Part shown: positions 11,705 through 24,707 of the stretch, piece by piece | How the letters are laid out: each line of letters begins with the position of its first letter | How positions within the stretch are numbered: position 1 is the first letter of the stretch | Origin: a virus | DNA length: 31,601 nt | IMG/VR virus record: IMGVR_UViG_3300044515_000017 | Span: 1 to 31,601 of that record | Reading direction: 5' to 3' (one strand) | Translations under genes and position numbers: made by a program | Notes under the pieces: generated by a model | Told to the model about the DNA's origin: nothing | Seen by the model: the letters and a program-made list of their open reading frames with translations, nothing else | Database searches by the model: none

Positions 11705-11991
11705 ACATTCACCCAATGGTCACGCTCTGCTCGACGCTTGAGCCAGTCCGGCGGCTCGGCGTCACGGCGGTGGTCGCGACAGCGCAGACAGAAGTGCGGA
11801 CACTTGCGATCGATCTCGTCCACCAATTCGTCAGGAGTACCTGATCTATCCCGAATATCGCGTAGCAGGAAATACCACGCTACCGCCGACTCCTCCTCGG
11901 GAGTGGCAGGTGCCGCCCTGCGCGTCTCTGCACGGTAGCGACGCGATCCCGGGATGCGCTCGCCCGGACGTTGCGCTGAGGTGTCGCTCAC
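11701..11991 (-). CDS. Hypothetical protein with Cys/His cluster (96 aa)
   Basis: GTG start in a GTGA overlap with terL. The N-terminus is basic and polar; the middle is a helix ([18 protein letters not shown]); the C-terminus contains [15 protein letters not shown], a Cys/His cluster that could bind zinc, then [14 protein letters not shown]. No family recognised. Confidence 0.65.
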
Positions 11992-13328
11992 ACCGGCCTC
12001 CTGGACAGCAGCCCAGTCGGCACCGCAAGCTCGCGGTTGACCGCTGCCAAGTCGCTACTGTCGCTGCGAAACGTCAACTGCGAGTAGGCGCCGCTCAGGC
12101 AGTCCACGATATCGTCATGGCCTCCCGGGAACGCCTCGAGTTCGTCCATCACCTCGCTGTACCACCTCGCTGCTACCACGCTGATCTCCCCGTGGCTGGC
12201 CGCCGCGCTGCACGCCCGAGCCCTGACCTCCTTCGGGCCAGTCTCCTTGACGCCCTTCGCATCATAGCCTCGCAGCAGGCGCCGGATGGTGGCGCTGTAG
12301 TGCTTGCCGGCCGACCCCGGCTCCTCGCCCCACCGCACGCTCACCTCGCGGCCGTCGATGATGGCCTGATTAGCGATGACCTCCTCCACCTTCCCCGGAC
12401 CCCATCGACCGCGCACCACGTCCACGATGTATGCCTGTCCGCGGTGGTCCTGGCAGAGCAGCAAGCCGACGGTCCAGTCTGGGTCTTTGTTCGTCTCGCT
12501 CTCCTCTGTCGCCGCAGTGTCCCACCACCGGATCTGACGCCGCAACGCACGCGGTAGCGTTTCGATGACGGGGAACCACTCGCGCTTGAACATGTTGCCA
12601 GCGACAGTGACGTCCCAGTCACCCTTGAGTAGACGCGCTCGCGTTACGGGATCAAGGCGCATGAGGTTGGCAACGTAGGCGTCACGGTCGATGTGCGGGT
12701 TATCAGCGATAGTTGCACGAACGAAGGGACGTTCAGGCTTCGGCGCCATCGGTGAGAACCGCGCCTTGTACCAATCATGACCAGGGCCGCCAGGGTTGGT
12801 GGCAGACCGCATCAGTCCCGGCACGTCAGATCCTGCCAACCGACGGATACGTGAGAACAGGAACAGATAGTCTTGCTCCCTGAACATCGTGCACTCATCG
12901 AAAGCAACGAGCGAGAGTTCCGACGACTGATAGCGCAGGCGGTCCACGCTGGCCTCGAGATAACCGAAGGTGAGCGATGCGCCAGATGGGAACCTGAACG
13001 TAGACGACTGCGCATCCCATCGCACCTTGCCGCCCAACCATGCGAACGCGCGATCCAGCAGTGCACCGGGCAGCGTGAGCTCGCGGTGCGTTTTGCGGAG
13101 GATCAGGCCGGCGTATGTTGGACGGTCCACGTACATCAGCGCCGCCATCAACAAGGAGTCGCTCTTGCCGCCGCCGGCGGCTCCTCCCACACCCACCTCC
13201 TCTTGCGTGAGAGCGAGGAACGCAGCCTGTATCGGCGTCGGGTCGTGAGGGATGTACGGGTTACGCGCTACGTTCTGCTTTACCCACAGGACGCGGCGGC
13301 CGATCTCCTCAACGGTCGGGAGTGGCAT
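11988..13328 (-). CDS. terL: Terminase large subunit
   Basis: Packaging motor ATPase and nuclease. 446 residues from the chosen ATG. Q adenine-type motif TPIQAAFL near residue 31; Walker A GGAAGGGKSD at 48-57; Walker B LVAFDE at 140-145; coupling motif SATNPGG. The C-terminal RNase H-like nuclease shows IRWWDTAATEE and, near the end, GGHDDIVDCLSGA. Length is normal for phage terminases. An upstream in-frame start at 13406 would add 26 residues with a CxxC, but that DNA is coding for the zinc-ribbon gene in another frame, so the 13328 start (20-bp overlap) is preferred. It follows terS and the ribbon gene and precedes the portal, the usual packaging order. Confidence 0.95.
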   Translation of the reverse strand: MPLPTVEEIGRRVLWVKQNVARNPYIPHDPTPIQAAFLALTQEEVGVGGAAGGGKSDSLLMAALMYVDRPTYAGLILRKTHRELTLPGALLDRAFAWLGGKVRWDAQSSTFRFPSGASLTFGYLEASVDRLRYQSSELSLVAFDECTMFREQDYLFLFSRIRRLAGSDVPGLMRSATNPGGPGHDWYKARFSPMAPKPERPFVRATIADNPHIDRDAYVANLMRLDPVTRARLLKGDWDVTVAGNMFKREWFPVIETLPRALRRQIRWWDTAATEESETNKDPDWTVGLLLCQDHRGQAYIVDVVRGRWGPGKVEEVIANQAIIDGREVSVRWGEEPGSAGKHYSATIRRLLRGYDAKGVKETGPKEVRARACSAAASHGEISVVAARWYSEVMDELEAFPGGHDDIVDCLSGAYSQLTFRSDSSDLAAVNRELAVPTGLLSRRPV

Positions 13329-15627: not shown

Positions 15628-15836
15628 GTGAACAACACCTCCACCGACCTCGTGCACTGAAGGCATCCGAACATGGGTGGACCGCCACTGGGCTTCGGCA
15701 TCAAGGCAACCATCGCCTCCTTGCACTCCACGCACCGCAGGGTCATGGTGTACGCCGCCACGTCGGCGTCCTCTGGCGGGAACAGAGTGGCGATCTGGGC
15801 CGCGAACGAGATCTCCTCGGTCTGCTCAGCCATCAT
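15624..15836 (-). CDS. Zinc-ribbon mini-protein (70 aa)
   Basis: Start at an ATG (tandem ATGATG, 15836/15833) just inside the end of the ParB-like gene. Contains RCVECKEAMVALMPKPSGGP, then FGCLQCTRSVEVLF: two CxxC knuckles 21 residues apart, a clear ribbon. Zinc binding is likely; function unknown. Confidence 0.65.
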   Translation of the reverse strand: MMAEQTEEISFAAQIATLFPPEDADVAAYTMTLRCVECKEAMVALMPKPSGGPPMFGCLQCTRSVEVLFT

Positions 15837-16815
15837 CGCCACCCAAGGCACGCACTGCCGCCAGCGCCTCGCCCATGGCCACCCGAGACTGATGCGTCAG
15901 TCTACGCAGAAGATCGTCCACCGCTTCCTCCGTTGGCGCGCACTGCAGGATGAAACTCGGCTCCCGCCACTCGCTCTCACGCGGGTAGAACCGCTCCTCG
16001 CCACCAATGAGCCGCCTGCGTGCCGTTGGGTTAGGGGCTTGGTACCGGAAGGTGACCGTGCAGGCGATCATGCGCAGATGGTCAGACACGTCGAGGGCGG
16101 CTGGGTCGAAGTTTTCGTCCTCGTCGTCGGGCTCGTCAGGACCGTTACCGTTGAGCTTGCGCCGCGCTTCGGACACCGACCGAGCCTTGCCCTCATGGAT
16201 CGCCTCTGCCACGCGCTCCTGCTCTTCGGTGTCGAGTCGCCCCAGGGTGAGAAGGTCGGTCTGACTGTTCGCCACGCCCGTCGACCGGATGGCGTCGCGG
16301 ATCTCCCGAGGGAGACGCATGACGATCTCCACCCGCATCCTTGCGGTCCGCTCTCCCAGCCCAACCTGCTCCGCGATGGCCTTCGTGGTCATGGGAGGTC
16401 CGGCAACATTTGCCGGTCCTACTTCTGTGTGTTGGTTGTTGCCGCGTTCGGCTCGTAGACCCATCTGCCGAAGGATCTCGCTCCGTCTTACGAGATGCTC
16501 GCCCTGCTCAAGAATGGTCAGCGAGTGGTGCTGTAAGTTCTCGTCGATCTCTGCGAGTTCGGCATCGAGCGGGTCATAGTCCTTCACCAACGCAGGGATG
16601 GCCGACCACCCGAGGGACTTGCAGGACAGCAGGCGGTGGTACCCACATACAAGGATCCAACCCGAGTCGTCGGCCCTGACCGTGATCGGGTTGAGCAATC
16701 CAGACCGCTGGACGCTCTGCTGGAGTTCGGAGAAGTCCGACCGCTCACGCTTGCGCGGCAACTCCACCGTGATCTGGTCGATGGGCAGCAGTACGTACTC
16801 AGAGGCCATGATCAC
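15826..16815 (-). CDS. ParB-like DNA-binding protein
   Basis: 329 residues from the GTG of a GTGA overlap; an ATG at 16809 is an alternative start. The N-terminal ParB/Srx-like domain shows LPIDQITVELPRKRERSDFS, LNPITVRADDSGW and the nucleotide-binding GYHRLLSCKSLGWSAIP (about 58-74; GxHRxxA in ParB). Residues 155-185 form an HTH (TTKAIAEQVGLGERTARMRV). The C-terminal third is an acidic linker (DEPDDEDENFD) then an unassigned domain (HLRMIACTVTFRYQAP...EAVDDLLRRLTHQS). No ParA ATPase was seen, so it may be a regulator or nuclease-like ParB rather than a segregation protein. Divergent from the translocase operon and flanked by a palindrome-rich control region. Confidence 0.8.
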   Translation of the reverse strand: MIMASEYVLLPIDQITVELPRKRERSDFSELQQSVQRSGLLNPITVRADDSGWILVCGYHRLLSCKSLGWSAIPALVKDYDPLDAELAEIDENLQHHSLTILEQGEHLVRRSEILRQMGLRAERGNNQHTEVGPANVAGPPMTTKAIAEQVGLGERTARMRVEIVMRLPREIRDAIRSTGVANSQTDLLTLGRLDTEEQERVAEAIHEGKARSVSEARRKLNGNGPDEPDDEDENFDPAALDVSDHLRMIACTVTFRYQAPNPTARRRLIGGEERFYPRESEWREPSFILQCAPTEEAVDDLLRRLTHQSRVAMGEALAAVRALGGDDG

Positions 16816-18175: not shown

Positions 18176-18465
18176 GCAAGATCGACCCGACGCGGTACTG
18201 CGGCCATCCACTTTGCTCCGGGCATGTCCACGACGGGGCGGACCCGCGCGACTCCCGCATCGCTGAATTGAAAGAGAACAAGGTTCGCCTCGCGAACCTG
18301 TGCGAGACGTCCCAGAGGCTAAGCGATCGCTTCCTGGAACGAGCACGCACCGCATGGGATCTACTGACCGAGGCGCTGGAGGTAGGGCTGAACCCTGACA
18401 ACTTCGATAGCGTCGGCTTGGAGGCACGCATCCGCTCCGAACTCATGGATGAGCCACTGCCATGA
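18172..18465 (+). CDS. Coiled-coil-like protein with N-terminal Cys/His cluster (97 aa)
   Basis: ATGA start. N-terminus: RYCGHPLCSGHVHDGADPRD, a C-x-H-x-C-x-H cluster of possible metal-binding type, then a long helix (SRIAELKENKVRLANLCETS ... ARTAWDLLTEALEVG). Probably an oligomeric adaptor. Function unknown. Confidence 0.65.
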   Translation: MSKIDPTRYCGHPLCSGHVHDGADPRDSRIAELKENKVRLANLCETSQRLSDRFLERARTAWDLLTEALEVGLNPDNFDSVGLEARIRSELMDEPLP

Positions 18466-20210
18466 GCGTGCTTTACGGCGGCGGGTTGGTCGCGGCCCTC
18501 GGGTTCTGCGGCCTCGGCCTCGGCTACGCGGTGAACGCGATCAACACGCCCGCCCCCACCCCCGCGCAGATCCGCATCCAAGAGAAGGCACAGGCCCTGC
18601 ACCTCAGCCAAGAGCAGCAGCAGGCCCAGATTGACGCTCTGAACGCCAAGCTGGACTCGGAGTGGCACTTCGACCGTGCCTCAACGTGGCTGCGACTGCT
18701 GGAGATCGGCGGTCTTGCCACCCTGACCGTCTGCATCCCAGCAGGAGCCTTGGGCGGTACCGCTTGGCTCATCCACCACAGCCGCAAGGAACTGCCGACC
18801 AAGGATCTCCGCGTTGGGCTCCGGGGGATGGACTACGAGCAGAAGCGGACGATCCTTCGCGATCGGCTGCACGTCGCCGCCATTGCGGCCGGCAACCCCG
18901 CACTGCCGAAAAACCTCGCGCACCTGCACACCGTCCAGTCCCCACGGATCACTGGCGGTCAGGCCAATCTCGTTGAGGAGCCACCGCTGACCATCTCCCG
19001 TATCCCTGACGTGCCGAGTGTGGGACGGCTGATCCAGTCCGGCGAGATCGGCGGTAACCGACCGCTCCTGTTCGGCTACGCGGAGACCGGAGGTGTGAGG
19101 CACGAGGGACGGGAGCATTTCTCCATCGCCATCGTCGGCAAGCCAGACTTCGGCAAGTCGAACTCAGGCGGCGTGGTGTTCGCCCAGCACGTCCTCCTCG
19201 GCGCAGACGGCGTCCTCTGCGACCCCCACGCCGGCAACCCGCGCAGCCTCGCCACCCGGCTGGCACCGCTCGAGGAGGCGGGCGTGTTCCTGCTGCCAAC
19301 CGCGGACAGCCCGAAGGAGATCCTATCGGCGGTTAGAACGGTCCACGGAGAGCTCAAGGCGCGAGAGGGACGGCAGAAGCGGTGGCGCAAGGACAACGGC
19401 CCCAGCGTCCCGGCGCCCAAGGATCGGCTCCTCTCGCTCGTCATCGACGAACTGCCAGAGCTGCTCCGCGGCGAGCTTGCCGACGACCTCCCGCCCCTGC
19501 TCGCAGACATCATTCAGGCTGGCCCGAAGATGAACATAGTCGCCTTGCTCATGGGCCAGCAGTGGGCCACTATCGCCGTCGGCGGGGCGATGGTCCGCAA
19601 CTCTATCCCGGCAGCGATCCTCCACAACTGCCGTTCCGTCGATGCCCGAGCGGCCTCCGGGCTCCGCAGCGCGAACATCCCTGATGGCGTCGAGATGCTT
19701 GGGCAAGGCGAGGCGTTCATGGTCGCACCAGGCGTCAGTGCGGTGCGAATCACGGTGCCTCGCCTGGAGGCGGATGACCTCGTCGAGGTGGCGCGACTGG
19801 CCGCAGCGCAGCGCGGGAACGGGCTCGGGAACGGCGCGGACTTACGGTTCCTGCGCCAAGGAACGGCAGTAGGAACGACGATCATGGAGGCTGCGGTTCC
19901 CGCACGGATTTCGGCCGGTTCCGAATACGAATCCGCCGTTCCTCGCGCGGGCGCGCGGGCGCGCGTAGGGGACGAGCGGGCAGACAAGATCATCGCCATG
20001 CTCACGGCCGGCAAGAAAATCCCTGCTATCGCCAAGGCCCTCTACCAGCCCACGGTGGGTACGGAGCGGCTGGTCGGCAACGCCTACTACGCAGCGACCG
20101 ATGAGGTAACCGAGGTGATCGCGGAGTGGGTAGCTGCCAAGGCACAGACCGAAACGCAGCCACCGCTGACCATCCTGCCGATGGACGACGAAGCTAAGGA
20201 GAGCGATTGA
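18462..20210 (+). CDS. Membrane-anchored HerA/FtsK-like DNA translocase ATPase
   Basis: 582 residues. TM helices at about 3-25 and 80-105, with a Gln-rich coiled coil between (EQQQAQIDALNAKL). A P-loop ATPase follows: Walker A GKPDFGKS at 226-233, DPHAGNP at 254-260 (a DPK-like FtsK/TraG step), Walker B LSLVIDE at 324-330, then a helix of MGQQWAT sensor type. The last 80 residues (DERADKIIAMLTAGKKIPAI, AKALYQPT) look like a small helical DNA-binding domain. This resembles the TraB/FtsK/VirD4/HerA group that moves DNA at the membrane, and actinobacterial mobile-element proteins in particular. The usual FtsK gamma domain was not seen. Its job here is inferred: DNA transfer, segregation or defence. 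Confidence 0.8.
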   Translation: MSVLYGGGLVAALGFCGLGLGYAVNAINTPAPTPAQIRIQEKAQALHLSQEQQQAQIDALNAKLDSEWHFDRASTWLRLLEIGGLATLTVCIPAGALGGTAWLIHHSRKELPTKDLRVGLRGMDYEQKRTILRDRLHVAAIAAGNPALPKNLAHLHTVQSPRITGGQANLVEEPPLTISRIPDVPSVGRLIQSGEIGGNRPLLFGYAETGGVRHEGREHFSIAIVGKPDFGKSNSGGVVFAQHVLLGADGVLCDPHAGNPRSLATRLAPLEEAGVFLLPTADSPKEILSAVRTVHGELKAREGRQKRWRKDNGPSVPAPKDRLLSLVIDELPELLRGELADDLPPLLADIIQAGPKMNIVALLMGQQWATIAVGGAMVRNSIPAAILHNCRSVDARAASGLRSANIPDGVEMLGQGEAFMVAPGVSAVRITVPRLEADDLVEVARLAAAQRGNGLGNGADLRFLRQGTAVGTTIMEAAVPARISAGSEYESAVPRAGARARVGDERADKIIAMLTAGKKIPAIAKALYQPTVGTERLVGNAYYAATDEVTEVIAEWVAAKAQTETQPPLTILPMDDEAKESD

Positions 20211-21003: not shown

Positions 21004-23079
21004 GTGGCTAGCCCCTTCCGCGTCTACCCCGGCAGCACCTACCCAGAATGTTGGCCAGACCTCAGCCGCAAGTTCCGCCGAGGCAAGAGGTGCAAGCGGT
21101 GTGGTACGGATCGGGCGCTACAGGCTCACCACAAGAACCGCAGACCGAACGACTGCCGGCGGGCTAACCTCATGGTGCTCTGCCGCCCCTGCCATGAGAG
21201 AGAGCATGGGCGCAAGTTCCCCGATCTACCCGGAGGTGTGATGGCGACCCGGACCAGACGGCCAGCGAGGCGGGCCAAGGCGCCCAGGATCACCCACGAC
21301 CAGCGGCGCAACCTGCACGGCATCGGGGCGATCGTGGCGGCGCTGCTGTCCATCCCGCTCCTGCTCATCCCGCAGGGGTCGGTGCTCACGGACTGGCTGG
21401 GGGTGGGCGGGGATGCTCTGCTCGTGGCCGGACTGCTGCTGGTGGGAGTCCGGCTGCTGCTGGGCCACGGTCACGCCTCGATCTGGGGTGTGGGCATGGC
21501 GATCCCAGGCGTGGTAGGGCTGGTCGGACTGGCGTCGACAGGATGGGCGGGCCAGATCGGCGCAGGGTTGGCGGACTACACCGCGGCTCACGTCGGGCCG
21601 TGGTGGGCAGCGCTGGCTCTGCTGGGGCTGACCGTTGCGGGGCTGGTACTCGCTGTGGATCTGGACGTGCCGACCGTGAGCAGGGCGGTGTGGGCGCGCC
21701 TGCGAGGCTGGCTGGGGTCGGAGCGGGTCGGTAACTGGCTGCGCGGGACGGAGACTGAGGACGAGCCCGAGTCTCCAATCGTCACCGCTGAGCCCGTCTC
21801 CACCGCGAGCCGCAAGCACGCTGGCGACATGCCGCCGTGGCTGCGAGGGCCGCTCGAGGACGCCAAGGCCAACCCGCCGCAGCCCATGCTGCCGCTCGAG
21901 GACGACCGCGGCACGAGCCTCAGCGTGGCGGTCGTGGACGCACCTCGCCGGCACCGCACCACGCCGGATATCCGCATCCTCGATGACGCCCCGGTGGACA
22001 CGGGGAAGATGCGCGACCGCGACCGCGCCGTTGGCGAACTGCTCGTCTCGAGCCTCACGCTGCTCAACGCGCCGGCCACGATCACGGAGATCAACGGCGG
22101 TCCGGGGGCCACGCAGTACGTCATGCGGGCCACACCGGGAGTGACCGCCAGGAAGTACGCAGGGACGCAGACCGACCTCGCCCTCGCCCTCGGATCCGCG
22201 GTGCGCGTGCAGGCTCCCATCCCCGGACAGGCTGCGATCGGCATCGAGGTGGCGCACGCAGACCGACAGATCGTCACCCTGCGCAGCGTCCTGCAGTCCC
22301 CCGAGTTCGTCCGGATCGCCCATCACTCACATGTGGCCTTGGGGATCGGCGCCGACACCTCTGGCAGGCCGGTGATCGCTGACCTCGCCCGCATGCCCCA
22401 TCTGCTCATCGGAGGCACCACGGGGAGCGGCAAGTCCACGCTGGTCCGGGCGCTCATGGCCTCGCTGCTACTGCAGTCCAGCCCCGCCCAGGTTCGACTG
22501 GTCATGATCGACCCCAAGCGCGTCGAGTTCACGCCCTATGCCAGACGCGGCGGCATCCCCCATCTGTGGCGGCCCGTCGTCACCGAGCCAGAGGAGGCGG
22601 TGGGCGTCCTGACGTCCCTCGTGGAGGAGATGGAGGACCGCTACCGGATGCTGGCCGCTGCGAGCGTGGAGGATCTGGACGGCTACAACGCCGTGGCCGA
22701 CCCTCTGCCTCGCATCGTCGTGGTGATCGATGAGCTCGCCAGCCTCATGCTCACGGTCGGCAAGGAGGTGGAGACGTTGCTGTGCCGCCTCGGTGCGGAA
22801 GGTAGGGCGGCCGGCGTGCACCTCGTCGTCGCCACCCAGAGCCCACGGTCAGACGTCATCACAGGACTGCTCAAGGCGAACCTGCCGAGCGCCATCGGGC
22901 TGCGTGTCACCTCGGTCACGGAGAGCCGCATCGTGCTGAACGAGAAGGGCGCCGAGACCCTGAGCGGCCCCGGCGACCTCCTGCTCAAGCTGATGGACGA
23001 CGGGACGGCGAGGCGGTTGCAGGGGGCACTGATCACGTCGAAGGAGTTGGACCGGGTGCTCACTCACTGGACGGGGTAG
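21004..23079 (+). CDS. HNH nuclease fused in frame to an FtsK/SpoIIIE-type DNA translocase
   Basis: 691 residues from a GTG. Residues 30-68 form an HNH nuclease: C30, C33, H42, H43, N55, C60, C63, H64, H68 (LQAHHKNRRPND ... NLMVLCRPCHEREH). Four TM helices follow (about 106-123, 137-154, 161-178, 199-219), a linker, then an FtsK motor: Walker A GGTTGSGKS (470-478), IDPKRVEF (502-509), Walker B IVVVIDE (571-577), ATQSPRSDV. The C-terminal gamma DNA-recognition domain of FtsK is absent. There is no stop between the nuclease and the motor. However, an ideal GGAGG-TGTG-ATG at 21241 could also start the motor alone, giving two nested products. It converges on the next gene by 20 bp. Confidence 0.85.
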   Translation: MASPFRVYPGSTYPECWPDLSRKFRRGKRCKRCGTDRALQAHHKNRRPNDCRRANLMVLCRPCHEREHGRKFPDLPGGVMATRTRRPARRAKAPRITHDQRRNLHGIGAIVAALLSIPLLLIPQGSVLTDWLGVGGDALLVAGLLLVGVRLLLGHGHASIWGVGMAIPGVVGLVGLASTGWAGQIGAGLADYTAAHVGPWWAALALLGLTVAGLVLAVDLDVPTVSRAVWARLRGWLGSERVGNWLRGTETEDEPESPIVTAEPVSTASRKHAGDMPPWLRGPLEDAKANPPQPMLPLEDDRGTSLSVAVVDAPRRHRTTPDIRILDDAPVDTGKMRDRDRAVGELLVSSLTLLNAPATITEINGGPGATQYVMRATPGVTARKYAGTQTDLALALGSAVRVQAPIPGQAAIGIEVAHADRQIVTLRSVLQSPEFVRIAHHSHVALGIGADTSGRPVIADLARMPHLLIGGTTGSGKSTLVRALMASLLLQSSPAQVRLVMIDPKRVEFTPYARRGGIPHLWRPVVTEPEEAVGVLTSLVEEMEDRYRMLAAASVEDLDGYNAVADPLPRIVVVIDELASLMLTVGKEVETLLCRLGAEGRAAGVHLVVATQSPRSDVITGLLKANLPSAIGLRVTSVTESRIVLNEKGAETLSGPGDLLLKLMDDGTARRLQGALITSKELDRVLTHWTG

Positions 23080-23959: not shown

Positions 23960-24177
23960 CGGCGCCGATCCTCTGGGGCGAACCGGCAGTCGTGGACGTG
24001 GCTACCCCACTCAGCGAGATGGCACGAGCAGGCTGTCGACATGCGGACATCCTCCTCGATATCCGCGCCCTCATCACCCACTAGAGACCGCGCCATGCGC
24101 CTGACGAGGCGCTCCAGGGTGCCGATACGCTCCAGCGCTTCGTCAAGGCGCGGATCCATGCAGTTCTCCTCAGTCAT
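23956..24177 (-). CDS. Coiled-coil protein with Cys/His tail (73 aa)
   Basis: ATGA start. N-terminal helix DPRLDEALERIGTLERLVRR, then an acidic stretch, then TACSCHLAEWGSHVHDCRF, a C-x-CH...H-x-H-x-C cluster that may hold zinc. Function unknown. Confidence 0.65.
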   Translation of the reverse strand: MTEENCMDPRLDEALERIGTLERLVRRMARSLVGDEGADIEEDVRMSTACSCHLAEWGSHVHDCRFAPEDRRR

Positions 24178-24707
24178 CGTGCATCCCTCGCATCCACGTC
24201 GGTCTCGCCCTGCGCCACCCCGCCGTAGTTGATGAGCAGGAACAACTCGCGCTCCTCGGCCTCGGTGCGGAGCTTGGTCTGGTACGTGGCGACGGTTGAA
24301 CTGCGGAACCGGCGCTGGGCGGGCAGGGCCAGATCCTCGAACCACACCCACTCAGCATCCCTCGACCTGATGACCAGATCCATCGTGTTGAACCACTCTG
24401 CTGGCACACACAGCCGATCGCCGAGGAAGTCGAGGATCGCCTCGATGCGCTGCTTGCCGTCCACCACCCGGTCCGGCGCCATGATGTCCCGGCTGTTGAG
24501 GAACACGGCGCCGATCGGCAGGCCCATGAGCAGAGACTTGATCAGGTTGCGCTTGCGCTCCACGCCCCACACCGAGCCGCGCTGGTAGGAAGGATTGAGG
24601 TCGATCCGGTCAGGCACCTCGGCCAACATCCGGTAGTGGTCGACCGGGTAGGAGTACATCTGCGGCTGAACCCGCGGCAGCCCTCGGGTTGTGGTGCCCT
24701 CGGTCAT
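24174..24707 (-). CDS. Short DUF262 (GmrSD N-terminal-like) protein
   Basis: 177 residues; ATGA start. Shows the DUF262 signature: RIDLNPSYQRGSVWGVERKR, NLIKSLLMGLPIGAVFL, then DRVVDGKQRIEAILDFLGDR (DGKQR at 83-87). This ParB-like fold binds NTP and is the N-terminal half of GmrSD-type modification-dependent restriction enzymes. The C-terminal DUF1524 HNH nuclease is absent, so it is a single-domain form. It could be a phage anti-restriction decoy, an NTP-driven regulator or a piece of a defence gene; no data favour one. Confidence 0.8.
   Translation of the reverse strand: MTEGTTTRGLPRVQPQMYSYPVDHYRMLAEVPDRIDLNPSYQRGSVWGVERKRNLIKSLLMGLPIGAVFLNSRDIMAPDRVVDGKQRIEAILDFLGDRLCVPAEWFNTMDLVIRSRDAEWVWFEDLALPAQRRFRSSTVATYQTKLRTEAEERELFLLINYGGVAQGETDVDARDAR

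What the first reader, a model, noticed from the sequence alone, without database searches (positions are those of the whole stretch)
21004..23079. HNH nuclease joined in frame to a membrane FtsK motor, with an optional internal start
No stop separates a complete HNH motif (C30, C33, H42, H43, N55, C60, C63, H68) from a four-TM FtsK motor that lacks the gamma domain. The ideal GGAGG-ATG at 21241 means two products are possible, the fusion and the motor alone. An N-terminal HNH on an FtsK motor is unusual and would place a nuclease at the membrane next to a DNA pump. This is my main candidate for an undescribed architecture.
Basis: partly seen in the sequence, partly recalled or inferred. Interest (0 to 1): 0.75.

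Follow-up and report, generated by a model that had tools for sequence, protein, structure and literature searches.

The report
Phage HNH nuclease–membrane DNA pump fusion
This phage gene encodes a membrane-anchored DNA-pumping motor with a DNA-cutting (HNH) domain joined to its front end, and because two other phages keep the same joined gene in the same place it is a real, selected protein design that has apparently not been described before.

Summary
ORF 21004-23079 (691 aa) has no stop between an HNH domain (residues ~24-72) and a four-TM FtsK alpha/beta motor that lacks the gamma domain. It is not a sequencing accident. Two other viral contigs (L142 on a 109.8 kb contig, L143 on a 79.1 kb contig) carry the same 706-aa HNH-4TM-FtsK gene at the collinear position. 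The junction differs by exactly one codon (LPGGVMATR / LPAGGVMATR), so the reading frame survived an indel. The HNH part is under purifying selection (dN/dS about 0.15). The strong internal GGAGG-ATG at 21241 is also conserved, and an HNH-less relative's motor starts in the same way, so fusion and motor-alone products are both plausible; neither was measured. Of 71 viral FtsK-like proteins scanned, only these three have an HNH. Nine carry an N-terminal PD-(D/E)XK nuclease and one an N-terminal Mrr nuclease, all without TM segments. So phages have armed FtsK motors with nucleases several times, and this is the membrane-anchored HNH version. Most likely it works as a translocase-coupled nuclease acting on DNA at the inner membrane, perhaps to exclude or restrict other DNA. 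The role is inferred, not shown. I found no paper describing this architecture.

The parts
21004..23079 (+). HNH-4TM-FtsK fusion gene, GTG start, 691 aa
   Evidence: Open frame; syntenic 706-aa orthologs in L142 and L143
20993..20997 (+). weak Shine-Dalgarno-like GGTGA, 6 nt before the GTG start; overlaps the stop of the upstream gene
   Evidence: sequence; not conserved in L142/L143
21073..21219 (+). HNH (His-Me finger) domain core, residues 24-72: two CxxC pairs, HH, N, H
   Evidence: PHROG HNH profiles, PADLOC ZorE HNH; dN/dS about 0.12 versus L142
21232..21243 (+). internal GGAGG plus ATG (motor-only start); a TGA in the +1 frame overlaps the ATG
   Evidence: conserved in L142/L143 although the flanking codons differ; L053 motor begins MSTRRRTSRRQPARR, like MATRTRRPARR
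21313..21663 (+). four transmembrane segments, residues 104-122, 134-152, 158-176, 202-220; 8 Lys/Arg before TM1 predict N-in
   Evidence: hydropathy
21964..22251 (+). FtsK alpha domain, residues 321-416
   Evidence: PF17854 E 2.7e-13
22321..23070 (+). FtsK beta/RecA motor, residues 440-689; Walker A GGTTGSGKST, Walker B VVVIDELA
   Evidence: PF01580 E 1.9e-51; AF2 pLDDT above 90, Foldseek match to 6t8b (FtsK on dsDNA), target TM-score 0.88
24174..24707 (-). neighbouring stand-alone DUF262/GmrSD_N (ParB-like) protein, 177 aa, kept near the fusion in all three phages; partnership only inferred
   Evidence: PF03235 E 5e-15; present in G000, G001 and G002; L142/L143 near-identity block ends at its start codon

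Best explanation
A tailed phage encodes a real fusion protein: a cytoplasmic N-terminal HNH nuclease, then a four-helix membrane anchor, then an FtsK alpha/beta hexameric dsDNA pump without the gamma (sequence-reading) domain. The gene has two start sites: a weak GTG that gives the nuclease-motor fusion, and a strong internal GGAGG-ATG that gives the motor alone. Mixed rings with some HNH-bearing subunits are therefore possible. The likely mode of action is that the ring loads on DNA at the inner membrane without sequence direction, moves it by ATP hydrolysis, and the HNH on the same membrane face nicks or cuts the moving DNA. The likely purpose is conflict with other DNA (incoming phage or plasmid, or the host chromosome near the septum). 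Shown: domain order, conserved frame, selection on the HNH, intact motor motifs, conserved internal start. Inferred: membrane topology, hexamer, use of both starts, cutting, and purpose.
For: Open 691-aa frame; two syntenic 706-aa fusions with a one-codon indel at the junction; HNH dN/dS about 0.15, all catalytic and zinc residues invariant; codon-position bias p = 0.009; motor fold equals FtsK on dsDNA; no gamma; 4 TM, N-in; internal SD-ATG conserved and matching the natural N-terminus of an HNH-less relative. Conflict role: HNH closest in PADLOC to ZorE, motor closest to SspH; ZorE is an HNH nickase recruited by a membrane motor complex (PMC11890865); HerA/FtsK plus nuclease is a published anti-invader theme (PMC10853773); other viral FtsK proteins carry PD-(D/E)XK or Mrr nucleases; a DUF262/GmrSD_N gene sits nearby in all three phages.
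Against: No biochemical data. The HNH model is low confidence (pLDDT 58 alone, 51-74 in the full model), and Foldseek hits to HNH folds are not significant. Pfam HNH is under its cut-off. Only three genomes are known, two of them near-identical over much of the gene. The gene is not in a recognised defence operon. The HNH could be a mobile domain or a structural zinc domain. No host is known.
Confidence: 0.6

Rival explanations
1. The HNH and the motor are functionally two genes that share a frame. The motor is made mainly from ATG 21241, and the HNH is a homing-type, mobile nuclease that reads into it by accident.
For: Strong internal SD and weak upstream start; TGATG overlap at the ATG; weak codon signal over the HNH; left edge of the L142/L143 near-identity block lies inside the HNH 5' end, as homing-type exchange might leave.
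Against: No stop exists after the HNH in any of three phages although the junction took a one-codon indel, so any HNH translation gives a fusion; same syntenic place in all three; no free-standing close HNH relative was found.
Confidence: 0.2
2. The HNH fold is a zinc-binding DNA or protein docking module rather than a nuclease, as DotN is on the DotL coupling ATPase; the protein is a DNA pump with an adaptor.
For: Weak Foldseek top hits of the HNH model are DotN (E about 1), an HNH-like partner of a membrane ATPase of the wider FtsK/HerA superfamily (the DotN role is from general knowledge).
Against: The HNH catalytic residues H42, H43, N55 and H64 are invariant in all three proteins, and the profiles that match are nuclease families.
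Confidence: 0.12
3. The protein serves the phage's own genome (segregation of a plasmid-like prophage, concatemer processing, or moving phage DNA at the membrane) rather than conflict.
For: ParB-like gene in the window (15826-16815); HNH proteins aid packaging in many phages (general knowledge, and titles found); phage FtsK-related genes often have unknown roles (PMC8190038 says so for gamma-like genes).
Against: A normal terminase pair is present and the gene is about 8 kb from it; no gamma domain for orienting on own DNA.
Confidence: 0.25
4. Sequencing or assembly error joined two genes.
For: A TGA in the +1 frame ends exactly at the ATG.
Against: Two other contigs keep the frame with a 3-nt difference at the junction.
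Confidence: 0.01

Closest known systems
Cellular FtsK/SpoIIIE
   Same: 4TM plus linker plus alpha/beta motor; motor about 40% identical to FtsK structures 2iut/6t8b
   Different: N-terminal HNH; no gamma domain; short linker; phage-encoded
Phage FtsK/SpoIIIE-like proteins (phrog_1358, e.g. Omega-type mycobacteriophage translocases)
   Same: phage-borne FtsK motor
   Different: the two mycobacteriophage proteins examined (433 and 442 aa) start at the motor, without TM segments or HNH
Viral PD-(D/E)XK-FtsK and Mrr-FtsK fusions seen here (L093, L094, L101, L105, L111, L112, L113, L117, L128; L121)
   Same: N-terminal nuclease on an FtsK motor in a viral contig
   Different: other nuclease folds; no TM segments; L121 keeps a gamma domain
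HerA/FtsK capture systems (DndH, SspH and relatives; PMC10853773)
   Same: FtsK/HerA motor joined to nuclease functions against invading DNA; SspH is the best PADLOC match of the motor
   Different: large multi-domain proteins with REase-type nucleases, no 4TM anchor reported in the passages read
Zorya II (ZorAB membrane motor plus ZorE HNH nickase; PMC11890865)
   Same: HNH most like ZorE; nuclease brought to a membrane motor
   Different: Zorya's motor is a MotAB-like ion-driven complex in separate genes; here an ATP-driven DNA pump in the same polypeptide
GmrSD (DUF262 plus HNH) type IV restriction
   Same: a DUF262/GmrSD_N gene lies near the HNH protein in all three phages
   Different: separate, opposite-strand genes, and the HNH is on FtsK

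Membership tests
FtsK/SpoIIIE translocase | RecA-like beta motor with Walker A and B | tested here: met
   PF01580 E 1.9e-51; GGTTGSGKST and VVVIDELA
FtsK/SpoIIIE translocase | alpha domain before the motor | tested here: met
   PF17854 E 2.7e-13
FtsK/SpoIIIE translocase | four N-terminal TM segments | tested here: met
   four hydropathy peaks
FtsK/SpoIIIE translocase | C-terminal gamma winged helix (canonical cellular FtsK) | tested here: not met
   no PF09397; protein ends at residue 691 directly after the motor. So FtsK-like, not a canonical chromosome-dimer FtsK
HNH (His-Me finger) nuclease | H-N-H catalytic residues and zinc CxxC pairs, ordered beta-beta-alpha | tested here: met
   sequence and invariance; predicted E39-42, E57-60, H61-68, low confidence
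HNH (His-Me finger) nuclease | score above the curated Pfam cut-off | tested here: not met
   12.9 bits versus 21.4; 18.5 for L142; PHROG and PADLOC HNH models match at 1e-6 to 1e-8
HNH (His-Me finger) nuclease | DNA cleavage | not testable with these tools
   needs biochemistry
HerA/FtsK capture defence system (DndH/SspH) | companion defence genes of those systems in the operon | tested here: inconclusive
   only a DUF262/GmrSD_N gene nearby; no Dnd/Ssp genes seen among the proteins scanned
Zorya II | ZorA and ZorB genes | tested here: inconclusive
   no ZorA/ZorB match among the ten proteins scanned with PADLOC; not every window gene was scanned and the contig is a fragment

The most novel reading that the evidence does not exclude
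A previously undescribed class of phage membrane machine: an HNH nuclease built into a four-TM FtsK pump, made in two forms from one gene, acting (perhaps with the nearby DUF262 protein) as a membrane-sited restriction or exclusion device that pulls DNA in and cuts it.
Probability: 0.35. Interest if true: 0.85.

Novelty: new variant of a known kind. Interest (0 to 1): 0.62.

Why it matters
FtsK pumps and HNH nucleases are both common, but a nuclease fixed to a membrane DNA pump suggests DNA can be caught and cut where it crosses or meets the membrane. It also fits a wider pattern seen here: viral FtsK motors have gained N-terminal nucleases of at least three kinds (HNH, PD-(D/E)XK, Mrr), which makes the unknown role of phage FtsK proteins testable.

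Tried and rejected
Whole-protein searches of IMG/VR and of genome contigs with 8-residue patterns found no fusion; only the HNH domain used alone found the two orthologs. A search for neighbours through the terminase gave no syntenic FtsK, and one through the 582-aa gene gave nothing. HNH against annotated phages: no match; HNH-TM against plasmids: only distant generic HNH. Relatives by taxonomy cannot be drawn for a virus record, so bacterial and archaeal genomes were not surveyed beyond three (none). A programmed frameshift that would end the HNH at the TGA before ATG 21241 was considered and set aside, because the in-frame fusion is conserved across an indel and needs no such event. A DnaQ exonuclease fusion first suspected in some viral FtsK proteins (PHROG 'exonuclease') proved to be PD-(D/E)XK. 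The HNH-only AF2 model was too weak for a fold claim.

Full report
What was checked. The frame 21004-23079 is open for 691 codons. HNH profile families match residues 25-73 (best E 4.5e-7 for the domain alone; ZorE-type HNH 1.8e-7), although the Pfam HNH model is below its cut-off. The rest is FtsK alpha plus FtsK_SpoIIIE with no gamma match. Four hydrophobic segments lie between residues 104 and 220, with 8 Lys/Arg just before the first, which predicts a cytoplasmic N-terminus on the same side as the motor. AF2 places the motor with pLDDT above 90, and it matches FtsK motor structures on dsDNA.

Is the fusion real? In the window alone the codon signal over the HNH is weak in all frames, and a TGA in the +1 frame ends exactly at the motor's ATG, so an indel error was a fair suspicion. 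The HNH domain used alone as a query found two other viral contigs: L142 (109.8 kb contig) and L143 (79.1 kb contig), 88% and 83% identical over residues 1-80. Both carry one intact 706-aa ORF, HNH-4TM-FtsK, from a GTG start. At the junction they read LPAGGVMATR where the window reads LPGGVMATR: exactly one codon more, frame kept. The three contigs are collinear over much of the window, so this is an orthologous gene of a phage group, not one odd contig. Versus L142 the HNH shows dN 0.061 and dS 0.41, and substitutions fall 6/5/17 over codon positions (p = 0.009): the HNH is translated in this frame and kept by selection. There is no stop after the HNH in any of the three, so any translation from the GTG gives the fusion.

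Two products? The upstream GTG has a poor ribosome-binding site that differs among the three phages, while GGAGG four bases before ATG 21241 is the same in all three even though the codons around it differ (GGA GGT GTG versus GCA GGA GGC GTG). An HNH-less viral relative, L053, begins its motor protein with MSTRRRTSRRQPARR, the same kind of start as MATRTRRPARR at 21241. The simplest reading is that the motor's ancestral start is 21241, the HNH was added in front, and both starts remain usable. No expression data exist.

How unusual? Of 71 viral FtsK-like ORFs scanned with PHROGs, an HNH appears in 3, all of this group. Pfam shows 9 others with an N-terminal PD-(D/E)XK nuclease and 1 with an N-terminal Mrr nuclease, none of which has TM segments. 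No annotated phage or plasmid record covers 80% of the query. Literature searches found no HNH-FtsK fusion, within an open-access library only.

The gene parts have different histories. Versus L142 the HNH (90% aa identity), the basic stretch (93%) and the TM part (72%) are much closer than the linker (35%) and the motor (48%), which suggests domain exchange. L142 and L143 are near-identical from about codon 24 of the HNH to the start codon of a DUF262/GmrSD_N gene, while the sequence on both sides differs. The same DUF262 gene is at 24174-24707 (minus) in the window. This hints that the fusion and the DUF262 gene travel as one module, but co-transfer is not proof of joint function.

How it probably works. 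Sequence supports an ATP-driven dsDNA translocase ring anchored in the inner membrane, without the gamma domain that orients cellular FtsK on chromosomes, with an HNH on the cytoplasmic face. I think it most likely handles DNA in conflict: the HNH is most like ZorE, an HNH nickase recruited to a membrane motor complex in Zorya II (PMC11890865), the motor is most like SspH among defence proteins, HerA/FtsK pumps coupled to nucleases are a published anti-invader theme (PMC10853773), and DUF262 (ParB-like) plus HNH is the make-up of GmrSD (PMC12839542). Tyrosine recombinase genes in both larger contigs suggest the phages may be temperate, which would suit exclusion of other phages. A role in the phage's own segregation or DNA processing, or a mobile HNH with a motor made mostly alone, remain open. 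I put about 0.6 on the translocase-coupled nuclease reading, about 0.35 on its being an exclusion or restriction device, and above 0.95 on the fusion frame being real.

Noticed in passing
L093, L094, L101, L105, L111, L112, L113, L117, L128 (about 4.0-6.1 kb, or 2.7-4.6 kb in L111); L121:4623-6344: Viral FtsK-like proteins with an N-terminal PD-(D/E)XK nuclease (nine) or an N-terminal Mrr_cat nuclease (one), no TM segments: soluble nuclease-FtsK fusions.
   Followed up: partly
24174-24707 (-): Stand-alone DUF262/GmrSD_N (ParB-like) protein kept near the HNH-FtsK gene in all three phages; the L142/L143 near-identity block ends at its start codon.
   Followed up: partly
21106-21156: 51-nt run with no substitution among the three phages inside the HNH active-site region, although dS around it is about 0.4: recent recombination or an extra DNA-level constraint.
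   Followed up: no
11988-13328 (-): The terminase large subunit has no close match in the otherwise collinear G001/G002 and is nearest to methanogen phage psiM2 and Gordonia phages: mosaic replacement of the terminase.
   Followed up: no
18462-20210 (+): 582-aa protein without any Pfam hit, only a non-significant PHROG hit, and no annotated-phage match; kept in G002 at about 67-72% but hardly in G001.
   Followed up: no
L158:1722-2780: Viral ORF with the same kind of HNH (YPSNW...CKRCG...LCRPCHEREHGREF) followed by a proline-rich linker, a zinc-ribbon-like CxxC pair and one C-terminal hydrophobic segment: possibly another membrane-tethered HNH.
   Followed up: no
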